NCBI RefSeq assembly: GCF_005938105.1
Contig: NZ_VCPE01000010.1
Location: forward strand, 124,001-188,000
DNA: 64,000 nt
Origin: Brucella haematophila
Lineage (GTDB): Bacteria; Pseudomonadota; Alphaproteobacteria; Rhizobiales; Rhizobiaceae
Reading direction: 5' to 3'
Under the pieces are notes generated by a model that was not told where the DNA came from, made no database searches, and worked only from the letters and a program-made list of their open reading frames with translations. Below are positions 20,760 to 57,716 of the stretch, piece by piece. How positions within the stretch are numbered: position 1 is the stretch's first letter; each line of letters starts with the position of its first letter. The translations under genes were made by a program, and so were the position numbers.

Positions 20760-21647
20760 TCAAGGGCTTTTTGAAGTTCCACTACTAGCAAGTGTGAGCC
20801 AGGCTCGCGCCGCATGGGACAGAAACGCGCCTTTGCGCCAGATCAGAGCCATGTTCCAGTTCATGTCCGCATCGGTGATTTTCTGAATGCGGACGCCGGA
20901 ATGGTGGCGTTGCTCGGCGATCATCAGGGGCAGGAAGCCGACGCCCATGCCCGCCGCCACCAGCTCGACGATGAAATCGATCTGGCTGGAGCGGACCGCG
21001 ACATTCGGGGCAAAGCCATGCTGCTGGCAGGCATCGAGGATAATATGATTGAGTGCGAAGCCGCTTTCAAAAAGAATGAAGGGCGAGCCTGCGATCTGGT
21101 CCAGCGTGACGCCGTCGCCGGAAGCCGCTTCATGGGTCGCGGGGAGCAGGGCCACGACAGGCTCACAGCGCACGTCCTGCCACTCGAAACTGTCTTCGAC
21201 CGGCAGAAGCGAGGCGGCAAGCTCGACATCGCCCGCCAGCAGAAGCTCTTCCAGACGGCGGCTGCCATGCTCGACCAGCTGAATGTCGATATCCGGGTAA
21301 AGCTTGGTATAGGCGGCGAAGACCGGTGCAAACAACATGCTGGAGCCGATGGGCGGCAGTCCGAGACGCAGGAGGCCGCGTTTCAGGCCGCGCAATTCAC
21401 CAAGCTCCGCCAGCAGATCGTCTTTCTCGGCCAGCATGGCCAAGGCGCGGCGATAAACAATGTCGCCCGCCGCAGTCAGGCGGGGTGGGGAAGCATCGCG
21501 GTCGAGAAGGGCAAGGCCCAGCTCTTCCTCCAGCTGCTTCACCGCTTTGCTGACCGTGGACTGGGTCGCGTGAATGGCTCTGGCCGCCGCGGAAAACCCG
21601 CCCTGGCGCACCACCTCCACAAATGCCTGAAAGCTCCTCAAATTCAT
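20760..21647 (-). CDS. LysR-family regulator, CidR-like by context
   Basis: 295 residues: N-terminal winged HTH (FVEVVRQGGFSAAARAIHATQSTVSKAVKQLE) and a C-terminal effector-binding domain. It is divergent from cidA/cidB-type genes, the usual arrangement of CidR, which responds to acetate or overflow metabolism in Firmicutes; transfer of that signal to this organism is inference. A 21-bp inverted repeat begins three bases from its start codon, suggesting autoregulation together with control of the divergent pair. Confidence 0.85.
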   Translation of the reverse strand: MNLRSFQAFVEVVRQGGFSAAARAIHATQSTVSKAVKQLEEELGLALLDRDASPPRLTAAGDIVYRRALAMLAEKDDLLAELGELRGLKRGLLRLGLPPIGSSMLFAPVFAAYTKLYPDIDIQLVEHGSRRLEELLLAGDVELAASLLPVEDSFEWQDVRCEPVVALLPATHEAASGDGVTLDQIAGSPFILFESGFALNHIILDACQQHGFAPNVAVRSSQIDFIVELVAAGMGVGFLPLMIAEQRHHSGVRIQKITDADMNWNMALIWRKGAFLSHAARAWLTLASSGTSKSP

Positions 21648-21692: not shown

Positions 21693-21770
21693 TAGAATAA
21701 GCCAAGACGGCCTATATTGAGCCTCAACAACAGACCGAATGCAAACGGGCAACGGCCCGGGAAGAAGCCC

Positions 21771-22190
21771 ATGAACGCCTCCAGAAATGCTCGTACTCTT
21801 GCTGTCCGCTTCCGCTATGCGCTGCACCACAGCCGCATGATGCAGATTGCGACGCTGGTCGGCTTCTGGCTGGCGGGTGAAGCTTTTGTGCGCGCGGTCG
21901 GTCTGCCCCTGCCGGGTGGTATCATCGGTATGGGACTGGTGCTGGCGCTGCTGTTGAGCGGTCGCGTCAGCCTGTTCAGCATGAAGCGCGGCGCGGAATG
22001 GTTTCTCGCCGAGATGCTGCTGTTCTTCGTGCCCGCCGTTCTGGCGATCCTTGAGCACCGCGAACTGATCGGCGTGCTCGGTCTCAAGATCATGGCTGTC
22101 ATCCTGCTCGGCACGCTGACGGTGATGAGCGTCACCGCATTGACGGTAGACCTCTGCTATCGCTGGAGCCTCCGTTATGCTGCCAAGTAA
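21771..22190 (+). CDS. CidA/LrgA family membrane protein
   Basis: 139 residues from the ATG at 21771 (an in-frame TTG at 21717 is less likely). Four hydrophobic helices; LPLPGGIIGMGLVLALLLSG and LFFVPAVLAILEH are the family signatures. CidA/LrgA proteins were described as holin-like and later linked to pyruvate and overflow-metabolite transport together with a CidB/LrgB partner. Here the partner gene follows with a 14-base overlap, so the two are translationally coupled. Confidence 0.9.
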   Translation: MNASRNARTLAVRFRYALHHSRMMQIATLVGFWLAGEAFVRAVGLPLPGGIIGMGLVLALLLSGRVSLFSMKRGAEWFLAEMLLFFVPAVLAILEHRELIGVLGLKIMAVILLGTLTVMSVTALTVDLCYRWSLRYAAK

Positions 22191-22872
22191 CCCCTTCGTG
22201 GCAACGCTATTCTGGTCGGCGGCCACGATCCTGCTTTATCTTGCGGCAAAGCGCGTTTATCGCCGCTTTCCCATGTGGTGGCTGACGCCTCTGGCCGTCA
22301 CGCCGCTTCTGCTGATGGGGCTGGTGGTCGCGCTCAACGAAAACTATCGCGGCTATTTTGGCGCAACGCACTGGCTGGTAGCGCTGCTTGGGCCTGCAAC
22401 GGTTGCCTTCGCAATTCCCATCTATCAGCAGCGCGCGACGATCCGCCGGTACTGGCCGGTTCTGCTGGCTGGCGTGCTGGTCGGCAGTTCGTCGGCCATG
22501 GCTTCGGCCTGGGGACTGGCGCATCTGCTCGGCCTCAACGAGGCGATCAGCCTCAGCCTGATGCCGCGTTCGATGAGCACGCCTTTTGCGATGACTGTTT
22601 CGGGTGATATTGGCGGTACGCCGGACCTGACCGCCATCTTCGTGGTGCTGACCGGTGTTTTCGGTGCGGCGCTCGGCGAAATGATGCTCAACTGGCTGCC
22701 GCTGCGTTCGACGCTGGCGCGCGGCGCACTGTTCGGCATGGGTGCGCATGGCGCTGGCGTGGCGAAGGCCCACCAGATCGGCAGCGAGGAAGGTTCCATC
22801 GCCGGTCTCGTCATGGTGCTGGTTGGACTGGTGAATGTGCTGGCTGCGCCGCTGATTGCACAGTTCCTGTAA
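22177..22872 (+). CDS. CidB/LrgB family membrane protein
   Basis: 231 residues, seven or so hydrophobic segments. Family hallmarks are LMPRSMSTPFAMTVSGDIGG and GAHGAGVAKAHQIGSEEGSIAGL. It overlaps cidA by 14 bases. The pair forms the two-component membrane system, likely a transporter or cell-envelope modulator; exact cargo unproven in alphaproteobacteria. A hairpin follows 30 bases after the stop. Confidence 0.92.
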   Translation: MLPSNPFVATLFWSAATILLYLAAKRVYRRFPMWWLTPLAVTPLLLMGLVVALNENYRGYFGATHWLVALLGPATVAFAIPIYQQRATIRRYWPVLLAGVLVGSSSAMASAWGLAHLLGLNEAISLSLMPRSMSTPFAMTVSGDIGGTPDLTAIFVVLTGVFGAALGEMMLNWLPLRSTLARGALFGMGAHGAGVAKAHQIGSEEGSIAGLVMVLVGLVNVLAAPLIAQFL

Positions 22873-22902
22873 GTTTCTGATATATAAAGATAAAAAAACT
22901 GA

Positions 22903-22929
22903 ACAGGCGCCCGTTTTGCGGGTGCCTGT
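22903..22929. terminator. Hairpin after cidB-like gene
   Basis: 11-bp stem (ACAGGCGCCCG/CGGGTGCCTGT, one G-T pair) with a TTTTG loop. The T-run lies on the left when read on the minus strand (AAAAAAA before it on plus), so it may stop transcription in both directions only weakly. Confidence 0.6.
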
Positions 22930-23004
22930 GCAATTTTGGCGACTGCCTGTTTCTTGAGCATTGTCGAATTTGCATAACTGACATGCATTATTAACCGTTG
23001 TTGA

Positions 23005-23145
23005 AAAATGAGCCACCGGTTAGAACTTGGTCATCGAGTTCACTCCTCCTCCCAGAACTCGATACCGGAATACGGCACTCCTCCTCCCAGCCGTATTCGA
23101 AGATCAGGCCGCGCATCCTCCTCCCGCGCGGCCTTTTTCTTTTTC
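23005..23145 (+). ncRNA. Probable small RNA with three CUCCUCCC-loop hairpins
   Basis: Three consecutive stem-loops. Hairpin 1: ATCGAGTT/AACTCGAT (23033-23063). Hairpin 2: GAATACGG/CCGTATTC (23068-23098). Both carry the identical 15-base loop CACTCCTCCTCCCAG. Hairpin 3: GGCCGCGC/GCGCGGCC (23107-23133) with loop ATCCTCCTCCC and a following TTTTTCTTTTT, so it is also the terminator. The loops are complementary to Shine-Dalgarno sequences. Alphaproteobacterial RNAs with CCUCCUCCC loops are known (the 'cuckoo' RNAs and CcsR RNAs of Rhodobacter). The strand follows from the terminator; the 5' end is a guess. Confidence 0.8.
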
Positions 23146-23265
23146 TGAACCTCCCCAGACAAGCACTGTTCCCGTACCGCACTTTGACCGCATGCGTTGA
23201 CAATCCGTCACCGCATAGCCCCATGGGCAATCTGCGCTGGCTGTATTATCTCTCCTGCAACGCAT

Positions 23266-23370
23266 GAAGCATTTCCAGCAAAAGTGCGAAGCAGTTTTGC
23301 GTTGGATAATGCGTGAAAACAAACAGATAGAGCGGTCCCGATGATTCCCTTAAAACAGGGACCGCTCTCG
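23266..23370. repeat. Palindromic repeat, copy 2, with terminal hairpin
   Basis: GCATTTCCAGCAAAAGTGCG core followed by an 11-bp inverted repeat AGAGCGGTCCC/GGGACCGCTCT (23329-23368). It lies immediately upstream of the next gene and would be in its 5' leader. Confidence 0.75.
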
Positions 23371-23383
23371 GGAGATCGCAATC

Positions 23384-24934
23384 ATGACCAGTGGCATCCA
23401 TCATCTCACGCTGATCACGCGCAAGGTGCAGGCGAATGTCGATTTCTATGCGGGCTTTCTGGGTCTGCGTATCGTCAAGCGAACGGGCGGCTTCGAGGAT
23501 GCGGAGCAGCTGCATCTGTTCTATGGCGACCGCTCCGGCACGCCGGGCTCCCTGATCACCTTTCTGGTCTGGGAAGACGGTTCAAAAGGCCGCGTCGGTC
23601 ACGGACAGGTCAGCGAAATTGCGCTTTCCATCGACCGGACGGCCATCGGCTTCTGGCTGGAGCGCGCCTTGCGTCATCACGTACAGTCCGAAGGTCCCGT
23701 GCAGGAATTCGGCGAACCGGTTCTGCGGCTGCGCGATCCCGATGGCGTGATCGTCAAGCTGGTCGGCAGTGATCTGGCAGCCAATGATCCGTGGTCCGGC
23801 GAGGGTATTCCGGCTGAATTCGCCATTCGCCGGATACGCTCCGCCACCATCCTGTCGGAACAGCCAGAACAGACTGTCGCTTTTATCGAGCGCTATTTCG
23901 GCTTTCACCGTCAGGGGAAGGAAGAAACCATCGACCGGCTTGTGTCGGATTCCGGCGACGCCATCGATGTGCGCGATGCGAGCGGCTTCTGGCCTGGCAT
24001 TCCGGGAACCGGCATTGCCGATCATGTGGCCTTTCGCGCCAGCACGACCGACGATGTGACAACGCTGGAAAAGGAGCTGTCGAAGCTCAATTCCAGCGAG
24101 GTCAACGTGCACGACCGCAAGTATTTCACCTCGCTCTATGTTCGTGAGCCGGGCGGAACTTTGTTCGAATTTGCCACCGACGCCCCCGGTTTTACCGTGG
24201 ACGAGCCGGTGGAAACACTGGGGCAGCTTCTGTTCGTACCGCCGGGCAATGAGAAGCAGGCCCATGCGATCCGCGCCCGCATGCCGCAATTCGGCCTGCC
24301 GGGTGAGGAGCGGGTGATCTATCGCGATCTGCCCTTCGTCCATCGTGTTCATCAGCCGGAAGACCCGGATGGCAGCACGCTGATCCTGCTGCATGGTTCG
24401 GGCGGCAACGAGAATGATCTCATGCCGCTCGCCCGCATGGCTGCGCCGCGTGCTACGCTTATCGGTGTTCGCGGTCGCAGCACGGAAGAGGGTATTCAGC
24501 GCTGGTTCCGCCGTTTCGACCAGAAGCGGTTCGACCAGAAGGATATCCGTTTTGAAGCGGAAGCCTTTGAGGCTTTTGTCGAGGGCGCGATTGCGGCCTA
24601 TGACATCGACCCGGACCGACTGGCCTTTATCGGCAATTCCAACGGGGCAAACCTGCTTGCAGCCTTCATGCGGCTTCATCCGCATATCGTGCACAAGGCG
24701 GTTCTCCTGCGTGCTTCGGAAGTGCTGGAAGAACAGCCGGATGCCGATCTGTCCGATGCTTCCGTTCTTCAGTTGAACGGTGCAGCCGATCCGTTCGGCG
24801 ATGCTTCTGGCGCATTGGCAAAGGCGTTGCGGGATGATGGTGCCGATATCGACGTTCGCGCAATCGAGGGTTGGCATGGTCTGACCGACGACGATATTCG
24901 GGTCACGGCTGAATGGCTGAAACAGAAACTCTGA
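23384..24934 (+). CDS. Ring-cleaving dioxygenase (VOC) fused to carboxylesterase, MhqO-MhqD-like
   Basis: 516 residues. The first ~300 form two glyoxalase/VOC modules (GIHHLTLITRKVQANVDFYAGFLG; later IADHVAFRAS and REPGGTLFEFATD with the metal glutamate), as in MhqO/LinE-type dioxygenases. The last ~200 are an alpha/beta-hydrolase of the phospholipase/carboxylesterase type: LLHGSGGNENDLMPLA, nucleophile Ser in GNSNGANLL, His in GWHGL. In Bacillus the equivalent MhqO and MhqD are separate genes in quinone and catechol detoxification, so the fusion supports a joint role here. A single-domain paralogue lies convergently just downstream. Confidence 0.85.
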   Translation: MTSGIHHLTLITRKVQANVDFYAGFLGLRIVKRTGGFEDAEQLHLFYGDRSGTPGSLITFLVWEDGSKGRVGHGQVSEIALSIDRTAIGFWLERALRHHVQSEGPVQEFGEPVLRLRDPDGVIVKLVGSDLAANDPWSGEGIPAEFAIRRIRSATILSEQPEQTVAFIERYFGFHRQGKEETIDRLVSDSGDAIDVRDASGFWPGIPGTGIADHVAFRASTTDDVTTLEKELSKLNSSEVNVHDRKYFTSLYVREPGGTLFEFATDAPGFTVDEPVETLGQLLFVPPGNEKQAHAIRARMPQFGLPGEERVIYRDLPFVHRVHQPEDPDGSTLILLHGSGGNENDLMPLARMAAPRATLIGVRGRSTEEGIQRWFRRFDQKRFDQKDIRFEAEAFEAFVEGAIAAYDIDPDRLAFIGNSNGANLLAAFMRLHPHIVHKAVLLRASEVLEEQPDADLSDASVLQLNGAADPFGDASGALAKALRDDGADIDVRAIEGWHGLTDDDIRVTAEWLKQKL

Positions 24935-24955
24935 GTGCTTGTCGATCAAACAACG

Positions 24956-24989
24956 AAAAGGGCCGCCGGATCTCTCCGGCGGCCCTTTT
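24956..24989. terminator. Bidirectional rho-independent terminator
   Basis: 15-bp perfect stem AAAAGGGCCGCCGGA/TCCGGCGGCCCTTTT with a TCTC loop between the two convergent VOC genes. Confidence 0.95.
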
Positions 24990-24995
24990 TACTTT

Positions 24996-35631: not shown

Positions 35632-35659
35632 ATGCTTCTTTAAATCGAAAACAGGCAAT

Positions 35660-36328
35660 ATGTCAAGGAATGACTTTCTAAATACGGACCTTTCGGGAGC
35701 ACGTTCGCCCGCAGAACGCATCATGCTGGCGCTCAAGATGCGCGGTGCGCAGACGGCTGCCGCAATCGGCGAACATCTCGGCACGACGGGCGAGGCGGTG
35801 CGCCAGCAGCTGGTGCGGCTGGCCGAGGAAGGTCTCGTTGCGCCGCATTCCGTTTCGCAGGGCGTTGGCCGTCCGTCGCAGTTCTGGGATCTGACGGAAA
35901 CCGGCAATAAGCGCTTTCCCGATACCCATGCCGATCTGACCGTGCAGCTTCTGCATTCCGTGCGCACCATCCTTGGTGAAGACGCGCTGGAAACGCTGGT
36001 TGCGCATCGCGAGACTGAAACCCGCCGCCAGTATCATGCGCGCCTCAAGGACATGGCTTTCGACGAGCGCGTCAAGGCGCTTGCAGATATCCGCTCGACC
36101 GAAGGCTATATGGCCGATGCCGAGCGGCAGGAGGATGGTTCGTGGCTTTTTGTCGAGAACCATTGTCCCATCTGTGCCGCCGCTGATGCTTGTCAGGGTT
36201 TTTGCCGGGCGGAGCTTCAGGTGTTTGAAGCGGTTCTCGGCCCGGATGTGTCTGTTGCCCGTACCGAGCATATTCTGGCCGGGGCGAGGCGCTGCGCCTA
36301 TGTTTTTACTCCGGCCAGTCCTTCCTGA
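35660..36328 (+). CDS. SufR-like winged-helix Fe-S regulator
   Basis: 222 residues. The N-terminal wHTH is GAQTAAAIGEHLGTTGEAVRQQLVRLAEEGLV. The C-terminal part has a cysteine cluster, NHCPICAAADACQGFCRAEL, and a further cysteine in RRCAYVF, matching the [Fe-S]-binding region of SufR-type DeoR/ArsR-like regulators. No suf genes are adjacent; sodB is divergent, so control of sodB in response to iron or superoxide is a reasonable inference. Its stop abuts that of the convergent MFS gene. Confidence 0.75.
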   Translation: MSRNDFLNTDLSGARSPAERIMLALKMRGAQTAAAIGEHLGTTGEAVRQQLVRLAEEGLVAPHSVSQGVGRPSQFWDLTETGNKRFPDTHADLTVQLLHSVRTILGEDALETLVAHRETETRRQYHARLKDMAFDERVKALADIRSTEGYMADAERQEDGSWLFVENHCPICAAADACQGFCRAELQVFEAVLGPDVSVARTEHILAGARRCAYVFTPASPS

Positions 36329-48384: not shown

Positions 48385-48722
48385 GCCATATCCCCTTGAT
48401 GTCAGCGCCAGCGCATTCCGAAAACCGTTTAACGGCATGCGGATCACGCTTTGGTTTTGCCCATGATAATAAAGATTTGCGGTGTGAATTCCCCTTCAAA
48501 ATTTTGAAAGACATCCAATGAGAAAGCTCTTTCTTAATGCCGAATAAGGCGGAATACTTCACGATGGGAACAAAAGCGGGAACGCCGCCGGTCTGCCATA
48601 TAAATGTGTTTTGATAGCAAAAACGATACTGGCAAACCGAGTGAAATCAGCGACTTGCAGCGGATCCGTTTCATGGACAAGGTTCATGGGCCGGAGAATC
48701 GCGCAAGGGGTCAGGAGTGCAA
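48385..48722. other. Divergent promoter region, puuE-uraD / uraH
   Basis: 338 bases between two purine-catabolism operons. It holds a short repeat-like stretch (GCGCATTCCGAAAACCG, near 48411) and AT-rich sequence. I see no convincing operator or gene. Confidence 0.45.
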
Positions 48723-49100
48723 ATGGGTCAGGGACATCACGGCGACGAGGGCAAGACGGGTCGGTTGACGACCCATGTGCTCGATACGGTCAGCGGCAAA
48801 CCGGCTGCTGGATTGCGTATCGAACTGCGCCGGATCGAGAATCACACGCCGCACAGCATCAAGGAAATCCGCACCAATCAGGACGGGCGCAGCGGCGAGC
48901 CGCTACTTGCCAATGGCGACCTGCAACGTGGTTCCTATGAACTCCTGTTTCATGTCGGCGAATATTTCGGCAAAGACGAAGACGGCGTGCCGTTTCTCGA
49001 TGTGGTGCCGTTGCGCTTTGGTGTTTCTGATGAAAAGGCGCATTATCATGTGCCGCTTCTGGTTTCGCCTTTTTCCTATTCGACCTATCGCGGGAGCTGA
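48723..49100 (+). CDS. uraH: 5-hydroxyisourate hydrolase (transthyretin-like)
   Basis: 125 residues. Opens 5-hydroxyisourate, the product of urate oxidation, to OHCU. LTTHVLDTVSGKPAAGL is the N-terminal HIUase motif (catalytic His), RRIENHTPHSI and the C-terminal tetrapeptide YRGS complete the active site. AGGAG stands six bases before the ATG. xdhA begins five bases after the stop, so uraH leads a uraH-xdhABC operon. Confidence 0.95.
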   Translation: MGQGHHGDEGKTGRLTTHVLDTVSGKPAAGLRIELRRIENHTPHSIKEIRTNQDGRSGEPLLANGDLQRGSYELLFHVGEYFGKDEDGVPFLDVVPLRFGVSDEKAHYHVPLLVSPFSYSTYRGS

Positions 49101-49105
49101 GCAGG

Positions 49106-50584
49106 ATGGTTCAGTCTGTGAGAAACAGAATATGTTTTCTTCTCAATGGCGAGCGGGTTGAACTCGACCGGGTTTCGCCAACGGAAACGCTGCTCGATTA
49201 TCTGCGTCTGGCCTGCAAGCTGCGCGGCACCAAGGAAGGCTGCGCCGAAGGCGATTGCGGCGCTTGCACGGTGCTGGTCGGCAAGATCGTGGGCAGCGAG
49301 CTGGTTTATGAAAGCGTCAATGCCTGCATTCGCTTCGTCGGTTCGCTGGATGGTTGCCATGTGGTAACGGTCGAGCATCTGCGCGGGGCGGATGGCGGTC
49401 TGCATCCGGTGCAAAAGGCGATGATCGACTTTCACGGGTCACAGTGCGGCTTCTGTACGCCGGGCTTCGTCATGTCGCTTTACGGGCTGTGGATGCGCAA
49501 TCCCAAGCCCGCCGATCCGGCCATCGAAAAGGCGCTGCAAGGCAATCTCTGCCGCTGCACCGGCTATGAGGCGATCATTCGCGCCGCTCGCGCCATTTCC
49601 GATTACGGTAACACGACGGAAGATCCGCTGGCGGCAGAACGCGCCCATGTGCTCGAACAGTTGAAATCCATGCGCGACGGTTCGCGCGTCGAAGTGGGCG
49701 AGGGCAAGGACCGTCTGGTTGTGCCTGCCGATCTCGATGATTTCGCAGCACTGCTGGCCGATGAGCCGAAGGCGACCGTGGTGGCCGGTTCCACCGATGT
49801 GGGCCTCTGGGTCACGAAGATGATGCGCGATATTTCGCCGGTCGTCTTTATCGGCCATCTCACGGAATTGCGTTCTATTTCCGAGGACAACAACGTCGTC
49901 ACCATTGGCGCGGGCGTAACCTATACGGAGGCCTTCTCCTTCCTCGCCAGGCGCATTCCGCAGCTCAGCGGTCTCATCAACCGCATCGGCGGGGAACAAG
50001 TGCGCAATATGGGCACCATCGGCGGCAATATCGCCAATGGTTCGCCGATTGGCGATACGCCACCACCGCTGATCGCACTCAATGCACGTCTGACGCTGCG
50101 CAAGGGCGATAGCCGCCGCACCATTCCGCTTGAAGATTTCTTCATCGCCTATGGCAAGCAGGACCGTCAGCCCGGCGAATTCGTCGAGGCGGTGCATGTG
50201 CCAATTCCGGCGGAAGGCAACCACTTTGCGATCTACAAGGTGTCCAAGCGTTTCGAGGAAGATATCACCGCAGCGCTGGGTGCATTCCATATGACGCTCG
50301 ACGCGGCAGGCAAGGTCGCTTCCATCCGCATCGCCTATGGCGGCATGGCGGCGACGCCGAAACGCGCCTTTGCAGTTGAGGCTGCCCTGTTGGGTCAGTC
50401 ATGGAGCGAAGAAACGGTGGAGGCCGCAATCGGTGCCTATGAGCAGGACTATCAGCCGCTCAGCGATATGCGCGCCACGGCGGATTATCGCCTGATGGTC
50501 TCGAAGAATTTGTTGCGCCGTTTCTATGACGAAACGCAAGGGCAAGCCGAACCCTTGCGCGCTCAGCATATCGAAGCGGTTTGA
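49106..50584 (+). CDS. xdhA: Xanthine dehydrogenase small subunit
   Basis: 492 residues carrying both 2Fe-2S clusters and FAD. Plant-type cluster ligands in GTKEGCAEGDCGACTVL, second cluster in CGFCTPGFVMSLYGL and NLCRCTGYEAI. FAD domain: VVAGSTDVGLWVTK and GTIGGNIANGSPIGDTPP. Transfers electrons from the molybdenum subunit to NAD+. Downstream xdhB starts 11 bases after the stop. Confidence 0.97.
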   Translation: MVQSVRNRICFLLNGERVELDRVSPTETLLDYLRLACKLRGTKEGCAEGDCGACTVLVGKIVGSELVYESVNACIRFVGSLDGCHVVTVEHLRGADGGLHPVQKAMIDFHGSQCGFCTPGFVMSLYGLWMRNPKPADPAIEKALQGNLCRCTGYEAIIRAARAISDYGNTTEDPLAAERAHVLEQLKSMRDGSRVEVGEGKDRLVVPADLDDFAALLADEPKATVVAGSTDVGLWVTKMMRDISPVVFIGHLTELRSISEDNNVVTIGAGVTYTEAFSFLARRIPQLSGLINRIGGEQVRNMGTIGGNIANGSPIGDTPPPLIALNARLTLRKGDSRRTIPLEDFFIAYGKQDRQPGEFVEAVHVPIPAEGNHFAIYKVSKRFEEDITAALGAFHMTLDAAGKVASIRIAYGGMAATPKRAFAVEAALLGQSWSEETVEAAIGAYEQDYQPLSDMRATADYRLMVSKNLLRRFYDETQGQAEPLRAQHIEAV

Positions 50585-50595
50585 AGGAGGCAGGC

Positions 50596-52953
50596 ATGAA
50601 CAAACATCCTGCAAGCACGATCAAAGCTGCCGCTATCAAAGGTGGTGTCGCCACCGATCAGAGGCATGATTCCGCGCATAAGCATGTGACGGGCGATGCG
50701 GTCTATATCGACGATATTCCGGAACCCGAAGGCACGCTGCATGTCGGTGTCGGCCTTGCGTCGGTCGCCCATGCCAGTATCAAGTCTGTCGACCTTTCCG
50801 CCGTGCGTGCAGCGCCCGGCGTTGTCGATGTGCTGACCTATAAGGACATTCCCGGCGAAAACGATGTCTCGCCGTCCGGCATGCATGACGATCCGATCTT
50901 CGCAGTGGACACGGTACAGTTCCACGGGCAGCCGATCTTTGCCGTCATTGCCCGCACCCGCGATCAGGCCCGCCGCGCCGCGCGTCTGGCCAAGGTTGAA
51001 TATGAGGAAATGCCGGGCCTGTTTTCCATTGCAGGCCTTGATGGCGCCAAGGACCGTCTCGTCTTCACGCCGCTCACGCTCAATCGCGGCGATGCCCGCA
51101 AGGCTATCGATGATGCGCCGCGCAAGGTGAAGGGCCGCATGATGGTTGGCGGTCAGGACCATTTCTATCTTGAAGGGCAGGCTTCGCTGGCTGTTCCCGG
51201 CGAGGATGAAGATGTCACCATCTATTGCTCCACACAGGGACCGAGCGAAACGCAGCATCTGGTTGCCCATGCGCTGGGCGTGCCGAGCCATTCGGTCACG
51301 GTTGAAGTGCGCCGCATGGGCGGCGGCTTCGGCGGCAAGGAAACGCAGGCCAATCAATGGGCTGCCATTGCCGCTATCGCCGCCAAGAAGCACAAGCGCG
51401 CGGTGAAAATCCGTCTCGACCGCGACGAGGACATGACTGCCACCGGCAAGCGTCATGATTTCATGATTGATTACGAGGTCGGCTTCGACGACGAAGGCAA
51501 TATTCTGGGCGTCGACTATATGTTCGCGCTTAATGCCGGTTTCTCGGCGGATCTTTCGGGGCCGGTCGGCGATCGCGCGCTGTTCCATTGCGACAATGCC
51601 TATTTCTTCCCGGCAGTGCATGCGCAGTCCGCGCCGCTTTACACCAACACCGTGTCCAATACAGCGTTCCGCGGTTTTGGCGGTCCGCAGGGCATGGTCG
51701 GTGCGGAACGTGTCATCGAGGAAGTGGCCTTTGCGGTCGGCAAGGACCCGCTCGACATCCGCAAGCTCAATTTCTACGATGCGATGGGGACCGAAGGCGC
51801 AACGCGCAATATCACGCCCTATCACCAGAAGGTGGAAGACTGCATCATCCAGCGCATCGTCGCGGAACTGGAAGAGAGCGCCGATTACGCCGCGCGGCGT
51901 GAGGCAATCCGCGCATTCAACGCCAAAAGCCGCACTGTGAAGCGCGGCATGGCGTTGACGCCGGTGAAATTCGGCATTTCCTTCACCAAGACCGAGTCCA
52001 ATCAGGCTGGTGCGCTGGTGCATGTCTATAATGACGGCTCGGTGCATATGAACCACGGCGGCACTGAAATGGGGCAGGGGCTCCATCTGAAAGTGGCGCA
52101 GGTCGTGGCGGAAGAATTCCAGATCGATCTCGACCGGGTGAAGATCACCGCGACCACCACTGCCAAGGTGCCGAACACTGCGCCAACGGCGGCATCGTCC
52201 GGCGCTGATCTCAACGGCATGGCGGCGCAGGATGCCGCGCGTCAGATCAAGAAGCGGCTGATCCGTTTTGCTGCCGAGCAGCATCAGGTGCCCGAAGATC
52301 AGGTTGTCTTCCTGCCCAACCGCATCCGCGTCGGCAATCAGGAAATCAGCTTCAACGAACTGGTGAAACAGGCCTATATCGGCCGCGTACAGCTTTCCGC
52401 TGCCGGGCATTACAAGACGCCGAAAATCCACTGGGATCGTGCCAAGGGCAAAGGCCATGCCTTCTATTACTACGCTTATGGCGCGGCCTGTTCGGAAGTC
52501 TCGGTCGATACGCTGACCGGCGAATATGTGGTGGAACGCACCGATATCCTCCACGATACCGGACGGTCGCTCAACCGTGTCATCGATATCGGCCAGATCG
52601 AAGGCGGCTTTGTGCAGGGCATGGGCTGGCTCACCACAGAAGAACTGGTCTGGGACAATAAGGGGCGGCTGCGCACCCATGCGCCGTCCACCTACAAGAT
52701 CCCGCTGGCATCCGACCGGCCCAAGATTTTCAATGTGGCGCTGACCGACTGGTCGGAAGCCTATGAGCCGACCATTCATCGCTCAAAGGCGGTGGGCGAG
52801 CCGCCGCTGCCGCACGGCATGTCGGTGCTTTATGCACTGTCGGATGCGGTGGCGAGCGTTGCCGATCACAAGATCAGCCCGCGTCTCGATGCGCCAGCCA
52901 CACCTGAGCGTGTGCTGATGGCTATCGAGCGGCTGCGCGGGCAAAAGGGGTAG
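50596..52953 (+). CDS. xdhB: Xanthine dehydrogenase molybdenum-binding subunit
   Basis: 785 residues. Molybdopterin-binding GGGFGGKETQANQWA, substrate-pocket segments FRGFGGPQGM and EMGQGLHLKVAQVVA, and the catalytic glutamate near KAVGEPPLP in the C-terminal part. Oxidises hypoxanthine and xanthine to urate in the cytoplasm with XdhA. The frame is open to TTG at 50581, but AAGGAGG (50583-50589) sets the ATG at 50596. xdhC follows four bases after the stop. Confidence 0.97.
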   Translation: MNKHPASTIKAAAIKGGVATDQRHDSAHKHVTGDAVYIDDIPEPEGTLHVGVGLASVAHASIKSVDLSAVRAAPGVVDVLTYKDIPGENDVSPSGMHDDPIFAVDTVQFHGQPIFAVIARTRDQARRAARLAKVEYEEMPGLFSIAGLDGAKDRLVFTPLTLNRGDARKAIDDAPRKVKGRMMVGGQDHFYLEGQASLAVPGEDEDVTIYCSTQGPSETQHLVAHALGVPSHSVTVEVRRMGGGFGGKETQANQWAAIAAIAAKKHKRAVKIRLDRDEDMTATGKRHDFMIDYEVGFDDEGNILGVDYMFALNAGFSADLSGPVGDRALFHCDNAYFFPAVHAQSAPLYTNTVSNTAFRGFGGPQGMVGAERVIEEVAFAVGKDPLDIRKLNFYDAMGTEGATRNITPYHQKVEDCIIQRIVAELEESADYAARREAIRAFNAKSRTVKRGMALTPVKFGISFTKTESNQAGALVHVYNDGSVHMNHGGTEMGQGLHLKVAQVVAEEFQIDLDRVKITATTTAKVPNTAPTAASSGADLNGMAAQDAARQIKKRLIRFAAEQHQVPEDQVVFLPNRIRVGNQEISFNELVKQAYIGRVQLSAAGHYKTPKIHWDRAKGKGHAFYYYAYGAACSEVSVDTLTGEYVVERTDILHDTGRSLNRVIDIGQIEGGFVQGMGWLTTEELVWDNKGRLRTHAPSTYKIPLASDRPKIFNVALTDWSEAYEPTIHRSKAVGEPPLPHGMSVLYALSDAVASVADHKISPRLDAPATPERVLMAIERLRGQKG

Positions 52954-52957
52954 CACC

Positions 52958-53812
52958 ATGAGCAGCGGCACGCTGGGCAGGCGGGACGATATCCGGGCGT
53001 TCCTGAACCGTCGCCACGACAGCGTGCTGGTGGAGGTCACGGATGTGAAGGGCTCTGCGCCCCGCGATGCCGGGGCCTGGATGCTCGTCGCCCGCGACAT
53101 GATCTTCCGCACCATCGGTGGTGGACAGCTCGAATATATGGCCATCGACCATGCCCGGAAAATACTTGCTGGCGGTCGCGATTCACCGATGGACGTGCCT
53201 TTAGGGCCGGAGATCGGCCAATGCTGCGGTGGGCATGTGGCCTTGAATTTCAGACGCGTCAATCGCGGCCTTGCGGATGAACTGGTCAGCAAGGTCGATG
53301 CGGAAATCGCCACCCGTCCACATGTCTATGTCTTTGGCGCAGGCCATGTCGGCGATGCGCTGGCCTATGCGCTGTCGCTGACGCCGGTACGGGTGGTGCT
53401 GGTGGATACGCGCGAGGCGGAGCTGATGGCTGTCGACGCGCCGGGTGTCGAAACCTGCCTCGCGGCGATGCCGGAACAGGTGGTGCGCTCCGCACCGCCG
53501 GGCAGTGCGTTCATCATCCTCACGCATGATCACGCGCTTGATTTTCTGATCGCCGCCGAGGCGCTGCAACGCCGCGATGCGATCTATGTCGGCATGATCG
53601 GCTCGAAGACCAAGAAGGCGACTTTCAAAAATTGGTTGAAACGCGAGTTCGGCAGCGATGATCTGTTTGAAGATCTGATCTGCCCGGTCGGCGGTGCTGT
53701 CGTGAAGGACAAACGCCCCGAAGTCATCGCAGCGCTTGCGGCGGCCGAAGTGCTGACCGCCGCATTATGCTCTGTTCGTGTTTTAGAATCTCAAGCATCA
53801 GATGCACGTTAG
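52958..53812 (+). CDS. xdhC: XdhC, molybdenum cofactor maturation factor for xanthine dehydrogenase
   Basis: 284 residues. XdhC binds sulfurated Moco and inserts it into XdhB but is not part of the mature enzyme. VTDVKGSAPRDAGAWMLV and IGQCCGGHVAL (Cys pair likely ligating Moco) mark the N domain; VYVFGAGHVGDALAYAL starts the Rossmann-like C domain, followed by YVGMIGSKTKK. Last gene of uraH-xdhABC. No terminator is visible before the convergent protease gene 8 bases away. Confidence 0.95.
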   Translation: MSSGTLGRRDDIRAFLNRRHDSVLVEVTDVKGSAPRDAGAWMLVARDMIFRTIGGGQLEYMAIDHARKILAGGRDSPMDVPLGPEIGQCCGGHVALNFRRVNRGLADELVSKVDAEIATRPHVYVFGAGHVGDALAYALSLTPVRVVLVDTREAELMAVDAPGVETCLAAMPEQVVRSAPPGSAFIILTHDHALDFLIAAEALQRRDAIYVGMIGSKTKKATFKNWLKREFGSDDLFEDLICPVGGAVVKDKRPEVIAALAAAEVLTAALCSVRVLESQASDAR

Positions 53813-53819
53813 CATTTGC

Positions 53820-55286
53820 TTAATGGCTCGTTGCAGTTGGTCGCACTTGTCGTAAGACACGCATCGAATACGGCCTGGAAAAATCTATGTTAATACCGTT
53901 ATGGGCCTCTACCCGCTTTAGATCCCAATTTTGTACAAACCCTGAAAAATCAGCAATCCGATTATATGAGAGATTATCCCAATCCGATAGCCTCACCATA
54001 GTTTCAGGCGCTGCCTGCACCTGTACTTCATGCCCATATATCCAAGACGGCAACGAGTAAGGATAGTCCTGTTCTATCGTTCGGCAATATTGCGCCGAGG
54101 ATGTCAGGCTGATAATGCAGCTGACGGGAATTGTATTAGACAAAACTTGCATCGAATGCGGTCTCGAGAAATCGAGAACTTGGCCGTTATTTGCTTCTAC
54201 ACTCTTAAGTTCATCGTTTAAGACAGTTCCGTGAAATTCCGCCAAACGGTTGTATGCGAGGTTCTCATAATCTGACAACATCACAGTAGTGTCCGGTCCG
54301 GCATCCACGTAAATCTCCTGTCCATAAAAATCCGGTGGTAATTCGCTTATCTTTTCTCCGATCGGCAAACAGTACTTCAAATCTGTATTCAAAGTTACGA
54401 TGCAGCCCTGTGGCTTCTCATTGGATAAAAAGCGAGCGTTCGGGTAAATTGACTTAATCCAATCCACGTATTTGGAAACACGCGCACCGGTAGAATTTTT
54501 TGATCCACCGCCGTTGGTGGTTGCAATGATGACCGGGTGGTTTCCACGAATTTGCCACCAAGCTGACCCACTATCTCCAGCTGCTACTCGTGCCCAAGAC
54601 GCTGAGGGCCCGTCTGGCTGGTATGATGCGCCAATCCCGTACTCTAGCTCAAAAATACTATCAATCCGACTGCGTGCATACAGTCGTCTTTCGCCTTTCT
54701 CCGGCCAGTAACCACTGCTTTGATTCAAGCCAACGCCCCATGTACCATAGCCAGCAAAGATGACATCGCGTCCTTCTTCGTCCAGCGCATCGTTCAAAAT
54801 TGGCCGTTCAATCGGCTGACCAGCGGCATCTACTATAGGATTTTTTGAAGGTAGCTTCAGGATAGCGATATCCGTTGATGCGCCACCCATGCCGGTTGGC
54901 ACATTGACGCGTTGCGGCGGCACGTATGCTCGACCTTCGCCCGACGCAATAATGGTTCCATCCCACGCCCAAAAAAGACCTTCGTAGGGCGTGTCGGTTC
55001 CCTGATACCCGGAGCAATGGGCTGCAGTGAGGATATAACTCCAACCGGCCTCATCGCCCAACCAGGTTGCAGTGCATTCGCCAATGTTACCAACAGCAAG
55101 CCAAGGGGTTTCGTAACTAAACTCGCGTAGCTTATCATTGTGAGTTTTGAGACCGTCTTCTATATCGGCTGTATCTCCGCCATAGTATTTGAAAGTCGCT
55201 TCGTCAATAACCAAAGAATAAGCATTTGAGCATAAAAATAATAGAAGAGATGCAATCAAACCGGCGCATAATGAGCCTTTTTTCAT
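53820..55286 (-). CDS. Secreted trypsin-like serine protease with two tandem C-terminal repeats
   Basis: 488 residues. Signal peptide of about 24 residues (KKGSLCAGLIASLLLFLCSNAYS), then a chymotrypsin-fold protease with His90 in LTAAHC, Asp139 in TDIAILKL and Ser239 in AAGDSGSAWW, so the triad is complete. Residues 294-388 and 389-478 are a tandem duplication; each has a Cys pair (GCIVTLNTDLKYC; SCIISLTSSAQYC), a YGQE/YGHE turn, LSDYENLAYNR/LSDWDNLSYNR and DFSRP near the end. The repeat resembles no domain I can name with confidence; a beta/gamma-crystallin-like fold is one guess. The gene is AT-rich next to GC-rich neighbours and interrupts the purine cluster, which suggests acquisition. 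Confidence 0.85.
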   Translation of the reverse strand: MKKGSLCAGLIASLLLFLCSNAYSLVIDEATFKYYGGDTADIEDGLKTHNDKLREFSYETPWLAVGNIGECTATWLGDEAGWSYILTAAHCSGYQGTDTPYEGLFWAWDGTIIASGEGRAYVPPQRVNVPTGMGGASTDIAILKLPSKNPIVDAAGQPIERPILNDALDEEGRDVIFAGYGTWGVGLNQSSGYWPEKGERRLYARSRIDSIFELEYGIGASYQPDGPSASWARVAAGDSGSAWWQIRGNHPVIIATTNGGGSKNSTGARVSKYVDWIKSIYPNARFLSNEKPQGCIVTLNTDLKYCLPIGEKISELPPDFYGQEIYVDAGPDTTVMLSDYENLAYNRLAEFHGTVLNDELKSVEANNGQVLDFSRPHSMQVLSNTIPVSCIISLTSSAQYCRTIEQDYPYSLPSWIYGHEVQVQAAPETMVRLSDWDNLSYNRIADFSGFVQNWDLKRVEAHNGINIDFSRPYSMRVLRQVRPTATSH

Positions 55287-55441
55287 TTTTTCCTCAAAAA
55301 AATATTTTAAATTTTTCTAGAATAGGTTACCGTTGATTTAATATTTAGAATTATCCTTTAAAAAAATTCAGAGTAGATATAGCGGTAATTTGTATTTATT
55401 GGTAGCTGGAATGTTTACTCACTTGTAAGCCTGTTGATTAC

Positions 55442-56356
55442 TCAGGCCAGCGCTTCCCGTATCAGCCGCTGGCAGCGCTCCGTCATGAAATCGATGATCA
55501 GACGCACCTTCGGGTCCTGAAAACGCTTGTGCGGATAGATCGCCGCAAGCTGGATCGGTGCCGGCGGCGTGCTTTCGAGAAGCGGTATCAGCCGACCGTC
55601 GCGGAGATATTCCTTCACCTCGAACAGCGGCTTGTTGATGATGCCGCGCCCGCCCAGCGCCCATTGCGTCAATACGTCGCCATCATCGGAATCATAAGGC
55701 CCGGTTACTTCGAATTTGCGAAGACCTTCCGATGTTTGAAGCGACCAGTAATATTCCTTCGACCCCGGAAAACGCAGCAGCAAACAGTCATGCGTGTCGC
55801 CCAGAAGCTCTTCCGGCGATTGCGGAACTCCATGTTTTTCAAGATATTGCGGCGCAGCGCAGATTACGCGCTCACAATTCAGGATGCCGCGCATGCGCAA
55901 GTTGGAGTTTTCCAGAACCCCGAGTTTGAAGGCGACATCCACGCTTTCGCTCATAATGTCGATCTCGTGGTCAGATAGTCGCAGGCGCACTTCGATGTCC
56001 GGATATTTGTCGTGAAACTCCGGAATGCCCGATGCGATGAGCCTGCGGCCAAGCCCCAAAGGCGCGGTAATGCGAATCGATCCCTTGGGATTTTTCGCAA
56101 GTTCCGCGACGGCTGCTTCCGCCTCATCTACCGCTTCAAGGATTTTCAACGCGCCGTCATAGAATATGCGGCCATGCTCGGTCGGGGTCAGCTTGCGCGT
56201 GGTACGGTTGAAGAGCCGGACGCCAAGATGCTTCTCCAACTCCTTGATTCGATTGCTCGCAACCGCCGGAGAGGCGCGCTGGTCGCGCCCGGCGGCAGAA
56301 AGATTTCCCAATTCGACAACGCGCACGAAAACGCGCAGATTATCAAGATAAGACAT
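55442..56356 (-). CDS. LysR-family regulator, divergent from puuD
   Basis: 304 residues from the ATG at 56356, with GGAGGGG before it. HTH region MSYLDNLRVFVRVVELGNLSAAGRDQRASPAVASNRIKEL is slightly atypical at the start but clearly LysR; the effector domain follows (RLIASGIPEFHDKYPDIEVRL). It is divergent from puuD with 124 bases between, so it probably regulates urate breakdown. Effector unknown; a purine intermediate would fit. Confidence 0.88.
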   Translation of the reverse strand: MSYLDNLRVFVRVVELGNLSAAGRDQRASPAVASNRIKELEKHLGVRLFNRTTRKLTPTEHGRIFYDGALKILEAVDEAEAAVAELAKNPKGSIRITAPLGLGRRLIASGIPEFHDKYPDIEVRLRLSDHEIDIMSESVDVAFKLGVLENSNLRMRGILNCERVICAAPQYLEKHGVPQSPEELLGDTHDCLLLRFPGSKEYYWSLQTSEGLRKFEVTGPYDSDDGDVLTQWALGGRGIINKPLFEVKEYLRDGRLIPLLESTPPAPIQLAAIYPHKRFQDPKVRLIIDFMTERCQRLIREALA

Positions 56357-56480
56357 GCGTCCCCTCCACGATTGTCTAGTTTTTTTTGAAAGTGATGGTC
56401 GTGTTGTGACGTTCCCTCGGACGCAAAGCTTTGGCACATAATAGGATAACGAACAATGGGGCGAACAATGGGAGTGCCTG

Positions 56481-57716
56481 ATGTATGATTTTGCCGTAGC
56501 CTGGGACTGGCTGGGCTTCGCAGCGCGGTGGCTGCATGTCATTACCGCGATTGCGTGGATCGGCTCGTCTTTCTACTTCATCGCGCTTGATCTCGGTCTG
56601 CGCCAGCGTCCCGGCTTGCCGGTTGGCGCTCATGGCGAGGAATGGCAGGTCCATGGCGGCGGCTTCTATCACATCCAGAAATATCTGGTTGCGCCAGCCG
56701 AGATGCCGGAACATCTCACCTGGTTCAAATGGGAATCCTACGCCACCTGGCTGTCGGGCTTCACGCTGCTTTGCATCGTCTATTACACGGGCGCCGATCT
56801 TTACCTGATCGATCCGAATGTGCTCGATGTGTCTGTTCCGGTCGCCATTGCAATTTCCATCGGCTCGCTGGCGTTTGGCTGGGTCGCCTATAACACCATC
56901 TGCAAGCTGATGCTGGGCAAGAGCGATACGCTTTTGATGGTCATGCTCTATGTCGTGCTGGTGTTCGTGGCCTGGGGCTATACGCATCTGTTCACGAGCC
57001 GCGCAGCCTTCCTGCATCTGGGCGCTTTCACGGCGACGATCATGTCGGCCAACGTGTTCATGATCATCATCCCGAACCAGAAAATCGTGGTGGCCGATCT
57101 CATCGCCGGCCGCAAGCCCGATCCGAAATACGGCAAGATCGCCAAGCAGCGCTCGACGCATAACAACTATCTGACGCTGCCGGTTCTGTTCCTGATGCTG
57201 TCGAACCACAATCCGCTGGCTTTCGGCACGCAGTATAACTGGATCATCGCATCGCTGGTGTTCCTGATGGGCGTGACCATCCGCCATTGGTTCAACACCC
57301 AGCATGCCCGCAAGGGCAAGTCGACCTGGACCTGGCTGGTGACGGTCATCCTGTTCATCATCATCATGTGGCTTTCCACGGCCCCGAAGATTCTGACCGG
57401 CCAACCGGAAGAACAGAAGGTTTCCGCTTTACAGCAAACTTTCATCTCGGACCCGCACTTTGGCAAAGTGCGGGATACCGTTTTGGGACGCTGCGCTATG
57501 TGTCACGCGGCGCAGCCCGGCTGGGAAGGCATGATCACGCCGCCAAAAGGCGTGACGCTTGAAACGGACCGGGAAATCGCCGCCCATGCGCGCGAAATCT
57601 ATTTGCAGGCCGGTCGCTCCCATGCCATGCCGCCCGCCAATGTCACCGGGGTAACGGATCAGGAGCGCCAGCTTCTCGCCTCCTGGTATGAATCCGCTAC
57701 TGCTGGAGCAAAGTAA
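56481..57716 (+). CDS. puuD: Membrane urate oxidase with cytochrome c domain
   Basis: 411 residues: eight TM helices (ARWLHVITAIAWIGSSFYFIALD onwards) and a C-terminal cytochrome c domain with heme ligands Cys338, Cys341 and His342 in CAMCH. PuuD oxidises urate to 5-hydroxyisourate and passes electrons to the respiratory chain rather than directly to oxygen, unlike soluble uricase. This gives UraH its substrate. guaD starts two bases after the stop. GGGAG ribosome site lies in one of two copies of an 11-base direct repeat. Confidence 0.95.
   Translation: MYDFAVAWDWLGFAARWLHVITAIAWIGSSFYFIALDLGLRQRPGLPVGAHGEEWQVHGGGFYHIQKYLVAPAEMPEHLTWFKWESYATWLSGFTLLCIVYYTGADLYLIDPNVLDVSVPVAIAISIGSLAFGWVAYNTICKLMLGKSDTLLMVMLYVVLVFVAWGYTHLFTSRAAFLHLGAFTATIMSANVFMIIIPNQKIVVADLIAGRKPDPKYGKIAKQRSTHNNYLTLPVLFLMLSNHNPLAFGTQYNWIIASLVFLMGVTIRHWFNTQHARKGKSTWTWLVTVILFIIIMWLSTAPKILTGQPEEQKVSALQQTFISDPHFGKVRDTVLGRCAMCHAAQPGWEGMITPPKGVTLETDREIAAHAREIYLQAGRSHAMPPANVTGVTDQERQLLASWYESATAGAK

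What the first reader, a model, noticed from the sequence alone, without database searches (positions are those of the whole stretch)
23005..23145. Triple-hairpin RNA presenting anti-Shine-Dalgarno loops
Three successive stems have unrelated sequences but the loops repeat: CACTCCTCCTCCCAG twice, identical over 15 bases, and CCTCCTCCC in the third, which ends in a T-run. Stem sequences diverging while loops stay fixed is the mark of selection on the loops. Loops of this kind (cuckoo RNAs, CcsR) are known in alphaproteobacteria and could pair with AGGAGG-type ribosome sites. Three units in a row, with the last doubling as terminator, is a compact translational-repressor design. Several genes in this window have AGGAGG sites that could be targets.
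Basis: partly seen in the sequence, partly recalled or inferred. Interest (0 to 1): 0.7.

Follow-up and report, generated by a model that had tools for sequence, protein, structure and literature searches.

The report
Known ar14 anti-Shine-Dalgarno small RNA
The three hairpins are a copy of an already described small regulatory RNA (ar14, also called NfeR1 or cuckoo RNA), whose loops look like the ribosome's own docking sequence and can block the start of translation; the modest new part is a conserved site suggesting which regulator switches this copy on.

Summary
Window 23029-23139 matches Rfam ar14 (RF02344), 83.7 bits against a gathering score of 58.8. Three 9-bp stems carry CCUCCUCCC loops; the third ends in a T-run. 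The genome (Ochrobactrum/Brucella group) has five ar14 loci over cut-off; 34 of 35 genus genomes hold this copy. Correction: in 30 aligned orthologues the loop bases do not change, but stems 2 and 3 hardly change either; stems differ between hairpins and between paralogues. What I add: a conserved LsrB/VtlR-type box, GCAT-N3-TG-N3-T, at 22972-22984 (29 of 30 orthologues). Its strict form TTTGCATANCTG occurs 6 times in 5.5 Mb, 4 of them upstream of ar14 loci, two of which follow DUF1127 genes. An LsrB orthologue lies beside trxB. So this copy is probably an LsrB/VtlR-activated translational repressor. Expression and targets were not tested.

The parts
22969..22990 (+). Conserved LysR-type (LsrB/VtlR-like) box, TTTGCATAACTGACATGCATTA; core GCAT-N3-TG-N3-T at 22972-22984
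   Evidence: 18 of 22 columns invariant in 30 orthologues, against 0 of 41 at 22910-22950; core exact in 29 of 30; strict 12-mer 6 times in the genome, 4 upstream of ar14 loci
22998..23026 (+). Probable weak sigma-70 promoter TTGTTG-N17-TAGAAC
   Evidence: By eye, from spacing and conservation (mean identity 0.91 and 0.80 in the hexamers, 0.71 in the spacer); the consensus scan found no promoter-like site. Inference.
23029..23139 (+). ar14 small RNA gene (Rfam RF02344); predicted start near 23033
   Evidence: 83.7 bits, gathering 58.8, whole model 1-123; fold z -5.85
23033..23063 (+). Hairpin 1, loop ACUCCUCCUCCCA at 23042-23054
   Evidence: Fold; pair 23037-23059 is A-U in 17 and G-C in 13 of 30 rows; pairs 23034-23062 and 23039-23057 go U-A to U-G in 2 rows each, the wobble expected if the + strand is the RNA; one row has A-A at 23033-23063
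23068..23098 (+). Hairpin 2, loop ACUCCUCCUCCCA at 23077-23089
   Evidence: Fold; pair 23069-23097 A-U in 23, G-U in 7 of 30 rows; loop bases invariant, with one extra base at a loop edge in 14 of 30 rows
23106..23134 (+). Hairpin 3, loop AUCCUCCUCCC at 23115-23125
   Evidence: Fold; stem and loop invariant in 30 of 30
23135..23145 (+). T-run TTTTCTTTTTC: intrinsic terminator tail of hairpin 3
   Evidence: Sequence; 23135-23142 invariant in 30 of 30
21717..22872 (+). lrgA-lrgB (CidA/CidB-type) genes upstream: neighbours, not part of the RNA
   Evidence: Pfam LrgA and LrgB; lrgB lies upstream on the same strand in 29 of 30 orthologous loci
22904..22928 (+). Terminator-like inverted repeat after lrgB, possibly separating lrgB from the RNA
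   Evidence: By eye; not reported by the terminator scan; lies in a poorly conserved stretch (1 of 76 columns invariant at 22870-22945)

Best explanation
The locus is an ar14-family trans-acting small RNA of about 110 nt. It is probably transcribed from its own promoter and activated by the LysR-type regulator LsrB/VtlR bound at 22969-22990. Its three single-stranded CCUCCUCCC loops mimic the 16S anti-Shine-Dalgarno tail and pair with purine-rich ribosome sites of a set of mRNAs, blocking translation start; the stems mainly display the loops, and the third hairpin also ends transcription. Shown here: family membership, predicted structure, conservation, copy number, conservation of the box, presence of an LsrB orthologue. 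Inferred from the S. meliloti relative NfeR1: expression, LsrB control, translational repression. Not known: targets of this copy and its signal.
For: Rfam ar14 over cut-off. Five ar14 loci in the genome; 3 to 8 matches at E<=0.001 in each of 35 genus genomes; 116 of 121 family genomes at E<=1e-4, 108 of 121 over cut-off. From 64 ar14 loci, 148 distinct hairpins with the exact motif all keep at least 6 arm-to-arm pairs (mean 12.1 pairs); with arms swapped between hairpins, 20 shuffles gave mean 6.0 pairs and on average 88 of 148 (at most 98) with 6 or more. In 30 orthologues all 39 loop columns of the window copy are invariant while flanks are not (0 of 41 upstream at 22910-22950, 1 of 55 downstream). 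Box: core in 29 of 30 orthologues; 4 of 6 genomic sites of the strict form lie upstream of ar14 loci. The LsrB orthologue lies directly downstream of trxB and matches PDB 9HH1, named as LsrB in PMC11975290, over its whole length, 483 bits. If the RNA starts at 23033, the core lies at -61 to -49, the place reported for the same consensus in the S. meliloti abcR1 promoter. NfeR1's three motifs act redundantly in translation inhibition, and LsrB binds its promoter in vitro.
Against: No transcript data. In S. meliloti only one of six NfeR1 copies is reliably seen on northern blots, so this copy could be silent. The sigma-70 consensus reported for NfeR1 homologues was not seen; the scan gave no promoter. 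The box consensus is loose: even with a two-base extension it has 71 matches in the genome. In the wider family 17 of 30 best loci have it within 450 nt upstream but 10 of 30 have it downstream; some downstream hits may belong to tandem ar14 copies, which I did not check. One of the five own copies has no exact box. Loop pairing with start regions in the window is only slightly above background.
Confidence: 0.85

Rival explanations
1. A silent or nearly silent ar14 paralogue: right structure, little or no expression, with the active copies elsewhere in the genome.
For: Only one of six S. meliloti copies is reliably detected by northern blot in the conditions tested; no consensus promoter was found here.
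Against: The unit with its upstream region is kept in 34 of 35 genus genomes (the miss is a 72% complete assembly), and RNA and box are nearly invariant while flanks drift, which argues for use.
Confidence: 0.1
2. The loops act on the ribosome or on a protein and not on individual mRNAs: a decoy that resembles the 16S tail and titrates Shine-Dalgarno sites or an RNA-binding protein broadly.
For: The same 9-base motif is used in most units and paralogues (175 exact motifs among 64 three-hairpin loci), so target choice has little room for specificity.
Against: Motif-mutant and reporter tests in S. meliloti point to defined mRNAs for NfeR1 and AbcR1/2 (passages).
Confidence: 0.15
3. A small protein gene: an ORF runs from ATG 23008 through the region.
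For: An open frame exists on the + strand (read by eye).
Against: The stretch 23004-23020 that holds the ATG is unconserved (0 of 17 columns invariant), and linkers and loop edges gain or lose single bases between orthologues, which shifts the frame.
Confidence: 0.01
4. Only a terminator or untranslated tail of lrgAB, without a function in trans.
For: It lies about 160 nt downstream of lrgB on the same strand, in 29 of 30 orthologous loci, and ends in a terminator-like hairpin.
Against: A box conserved at 18 of 22 columns lies between lrgB and the RNA; one orthologous locus (L121) has no lrgB upstream; four paralogues lie elsewhere in the genome, two of them after DUF1127 genes.
Confidence: 0.05

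Closest known systems
ar14 / NfeR1 (Smr14C2) of Sinorhizobium meliloti, Rfam RF02344
   Same: Three hairpins, CCUCCUCCC in every loop, stems of unrelated sequence, several copies per genome, LysR-type box upstream
   Different: lrgAB as neighbours here; the published -35/-10 was not recognised here; an NtrC site was not looked for; expression and targets of this copy unknown
CcsR1-4 with CcaF1 (DUF1127) of Rhodobacter sphaeroides, Rfam RF02791; the 'CIN1' arrangement of CcsR-like RNAs with DUF1127 genes
   Same: CCUCCUCCC loops in a row of hairpins
   Different: Below the CcsR1 cut-off (37.6 against 65.3); no DUF1127 gene within 700 nt upstream of the window copy, while two other copies of the genome have one
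AbcR1/AbcR2 (ar15, Rfam RF02345)
   Same: aSD-type motifs in S. meliloti AbcR; a VtlR/LsrB consensus upstream of the C52 copy in this genome
   Different: RF02345 finds two other loci in this genome, not this one

Membership tests
ar14 (RF02344) | Covariance score at or above the gathering score | tested here: met
   83.7 against 58.8 bits, full model
ar14 (RF02344) | Three hairpins each with unpaired CCUCCUCCC | tested here: met
   (predicted structure)
ar14 (RF02344) | Stems differ in sequence between members but keep pairing | tested here: met
   148 of 148 distinct hairpins pair; positions -16 to -3 and +10 to +22 carry 0.04-0.49 bits. Hairpins were picked by the exact motif and loci by the Rfam model, so loop identity there is no test; only the arms are. 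Within the window's own orthologues stems are nearly fixed.
ar14 (RF02344) | Several copies per genome in this part of the alphaproteobacteria | tested here: met
   5 over cut-off in this genome; 3-8 matches at E<=0.001 in 35 of 35 genus genomes
ar14 (RF02344) | LysR-type (LsrB) box upstream | tested here: met
   Consensus core exact in 29 of 30 orthologues; binding not tested
ar14 (RF02344) | Sigma-70 promoter CTTAGAC-N17-CTATAT | tested here: inconclusive
   No consensus site found; weak TTGTTG-N17-TAGAAC by eye
ar14 (RF02344) | Represses translation through the loops, Hfq-independent | not testable with these tools
   Known for NfeR1 (PMC10746234, PMC8844928, passages)
CcsR1 (RF02791) | Covariance score at or above the gathering score | tested here: not met
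   37.6 against 65.3 bits
CcsR1 (RF02791) | Encoded downstream of a DUF1127 gene | tested here: not met
   No DUF1127-like ORF within 700 nt upstream of the window copy (L003)
AbcR / ar15 (RF02345) | Covariance match | tested here: not met
   Two genomic loci at E<=0.01, neither in the window

The most novel reading that the evidence does not exclude
In the Ochrobactrum/Brucella group one redox-linked LysR regulator (LsrB/VtlR) drives a whole battery of anti-Shine-Dalgarno RNAs together: stand-alone ar14 genes such as this one, two DUF1127-ar14 transcripts, and an AbcR. The effects reported for VtlR-activated DUF1127 'small proteins' would then come in part from the ar14 RNA encoded just downstream of them.
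Probability: 0.45. Interest if true: 0.5.

Novelty: already known. Interest (0 to 1): 0.27.

Why it matters
The RNA design is not new. The useful addition is a concrete regulatory hypothesis: the same strict 12-base site sits upstream of 4 of the 5 ar14 loci of this genome, in two cases ahead of a DUF1127 gene. In Brucella melitensis VtlR mainly activates three DUF1127 genes and AbcR2 (PMC12595884, abstract and passages); ar14 RNAs did not come up in the passages I saw. If the link holds, protein-only readings of such genes need re-testing with the RNA kept separate. Whether those three Brucella genes are the same as the DUF1127 genes found here was not tested.

Tried and rejected
Rejected: CcsR1 membership (below cut-off); AbcR membership; small ORF; lrgAB terminator only. 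The consensus scan found no promoter and no terminator in 22860-23390; its terminator rule allows loops of at most 8, so it cannot see loops of 11-13 nt.

Corrected on the way: I first took the C52 locus (L006) for a single-hairpin cuckoo RNA, also in my notebook entry, which says the box is at 5 of 6 cuckoo loci; one search shows that C52 is an AbcR (ar15), so the count is 4 of 5 ar14 loci plus that AbcR. In one search the block 'orth_window' was anchored on the wrong base (it shows 0 of 30 near boxes) and is discarded; one search replaces it with the right anchor. L136 is the one orthologue without the exact core (one changed base). The 30 aligned orthologues are those returned as loci out of 34 genomes with a match; the other four were not aligned. 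Invariant columns count only positions present in the window copy: relative to it, 12 of 30 orthologues have an extra A on the 3' side of loop 2, 2 an extra T on its 5' side, 1 an extra C at loop 1. In one search, 64 loci gave 52 with three exact motifs, 9 with two, 1 with one and 2 with none; the last were left out of the hairpin test.

Targets: loop-to-start-region duplexes for 50 ORFs that I chose by hand out of the 57 (7 dropped) gave a mean of -6.8 against -5.2 kcal/mol for random stretches (Mann-Whitney p 0.019); 8 of 50 lie at or below the 5% background cut. Starts were not verified. Four of those eight are purine/urate breakdown genes lying in one neighbourhood (48717, 49106, 52958, 56481), a weak lead only. 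Plasmid search with 22180-23400: no match.

Literature: the original ar14 and cuckoo papers, the CcaF1 RNA-binding paper, and the Brucella and Agrobacterium DUF1127 papers that I asked for are not held; I rely on passages of papers that cite them. That I found no print of the LsrB/VtlR-ar14 link in this group rests on the searches only (listings, with passages of some papers). LsrB binding at NfeR1 in S. meliloti is in print (PMC10746234, section 5), and a paper on a LysR regulator of many small RNAs in Agrobacterium appears in a reference list but was not seen.

Full report
What is there. The stretch 23029-23139 (+) is a full-length match to Rfam ar14 (83.7 bits, gathering 58.8), the only match at or above gathering score in the 64-kb window. 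It folds into three 9-bp stems (23033-23063, 23068-23098, 23106-23134) with loops of 13, 13 and 11 nt, each holding CCUCCUCCC. The motif occurs three times in the window, all here; none of 100 shuffles gave three.

Which organism. The neighbouring LrgB protein found 48 loci in named records; the 24 at 89% identity or more are Ochrobactrum or Brucella species or isolates and bins named only as Rhizobiales or Hyphomicrobiales bacterium. Of the 48 loci, 23 have a row of three CTCCTCC units shortly downstream of lrgB; the 25 without include other genera, Brucella endophytica and a contig that ends within the gene.

Conservation. 34 of 35 genomes of the genus (own included) have a match to the 231-bp stretch with promoter region and RNA; the miss is a 72% complete assembly. 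Of the 30 returned as loci, 29 have lrgB upstream on the same strand. In these 30, loop columns are 39 of 39 invariant; arm columns are 12 of 18 (hairpin 1), 15 of 16 (hairpin 2) and 18 of 18 (hairpin 3); flanks are 0 of 41 (22910-22950) and 1 of 55 (23146-23200). Loop edges gain one base in some rows: 12, 2 and 1 of 30. One stem-1 pair changes on both sides (A-U 17, G-C 13); two stem-1 pairs go U-A to U-G (2 rows each) and one stem-2 pair A-U to G-U (7 rows), which fits the + strand as RNA. Against the structure: one row breaks a stem-1 pair (A-A), the outer extension 23028-23031/23064-23067 is not kept, and pair 23099-23139 is missing in 25 of 30; of 1080 cells in 36 predicted pairs 993 are standard.

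Family in the genome. Five ar14 loci pass the cut-off. Two (contigs C45 and C34) lie about 105-135 nt downstream of 48-residue DUF1127 genes (Pfam PF06568). Among 29 best loci from near relatives (28 of the genus, one of another genus of the family) 15 have such a gene, among 30 from the wider family 4. The association of DUF1127 genes with CcsR-like RNAs is known ('CIN1 locus', PMC10253847, passage). The C45 locus has a further CCTCCTCCC upstream of the Rfam match. Beyond the genus, 116 of 121 family genomes have ar14 at E<=1e-4; in the 60-genome set that reached other families of the order, 45 of 60 had a match at E<=0.001 and 37 of 60 over the cut-off.

Control region. The best conserved DNA outside the RNA is TTTGCATAACTGACATGCATTA at 22969-22990 (18 of 22 columns). 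It contains GCAT-N3-TG-N3-T, the VtlR/LsrB consensus of Brucella, Agrobacterium and S. meliloti (PMC7486931, PMC8844928, passages), in 29 of 30 orthologues. The strict form TTTGCATANCTG occurs 6 times in the 5.5-Mb genome (reversed control: 1); four lie upstream of ar14 loci, counting the two ahead of DUF1127 genes. The consensus also lies upstream of the AbcR on C52; AbcR2 is a VtlR target in Brucella (PMC12595884, passages), though whether the C52 copy corresponds to AbcR2 was not tested. Within 450 nt upstream the consensus is found at 4 of 5 own loci, 25 of 29 loci from near relatives and 17 of 30 from the wider family; in the downstream control at 1 of 5, 2 of 29 and 10 of 30; the reversed motif upstream at 0 of 64. 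So the box is well supported in this group and less so beyond it. The genome has an LsrB orthologue directly after trxB, matching PDB 9HH1, which PMC11975290 names as LsrB. The LysR gene inside the window (20760-21647) is a different protein, nearest to CidR (253 bits, below that model's cut-off of 415), and probably serves lrgAB (inference).

Mechanism. By analogy with NfeR1, whose three motifs act redundantly in translation inhibition and whose promoter LsrB binds in vitro (PMC10746234 section 5 and passages; PMC8844928 and PMC7143759 passages), this copy most likely represses translation of a set of mRNAs when LsrB/VtlR is active. The window itself offers little on targets.

Verdict. The finding is correct but describes a published family; the interest lies in the regulatory site and in the DUF1127-linked sister copies.

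Noticed in passing
L001 (G000:C45, about 35650-36160): ar14 copy downstream of a DUF1127 gene with a further CCTCCTCCC unit upstream of the Rfam match, and a VtlR-type box upstream of the DUF1127 gene in reverse orientation.
   Followed up: partly
L004 (G000:C34, about 239980-240445): Second DUF1127-ar14 pair with a reverse-oriented VtlR-type box upstream; an AbcR (ar15) lies about 5.6 kb away on the same contig.
   Followed up: partly
window 22953-22959: CTTGAGC, conserved in orthologues (mean identity 0.90, 3 of 7 invariant) just upstream of the LysR-type box; role unknown.
   Followed up: no
window 48717-57716: Purine/urate breakdown genes (HIU hydrolase, xanthine dehydrogenase parts, urate oxidase) whose start regions are among the strongest predicted partners of the loops; weak evidence.
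   Followed up: partly
window 24955-24990: G+C-rich hairpin with T-runs on both strands between convergent genes, probably a two-way terminator; gives only Rfam matches far below gathering score.
   Followed up: no
L183 546-1451 (-): LsrB/VtlR orthologue directly downstream of trxB, on the same contig (C52) as an AbcR about 6 kb away.
   Followed up: yes
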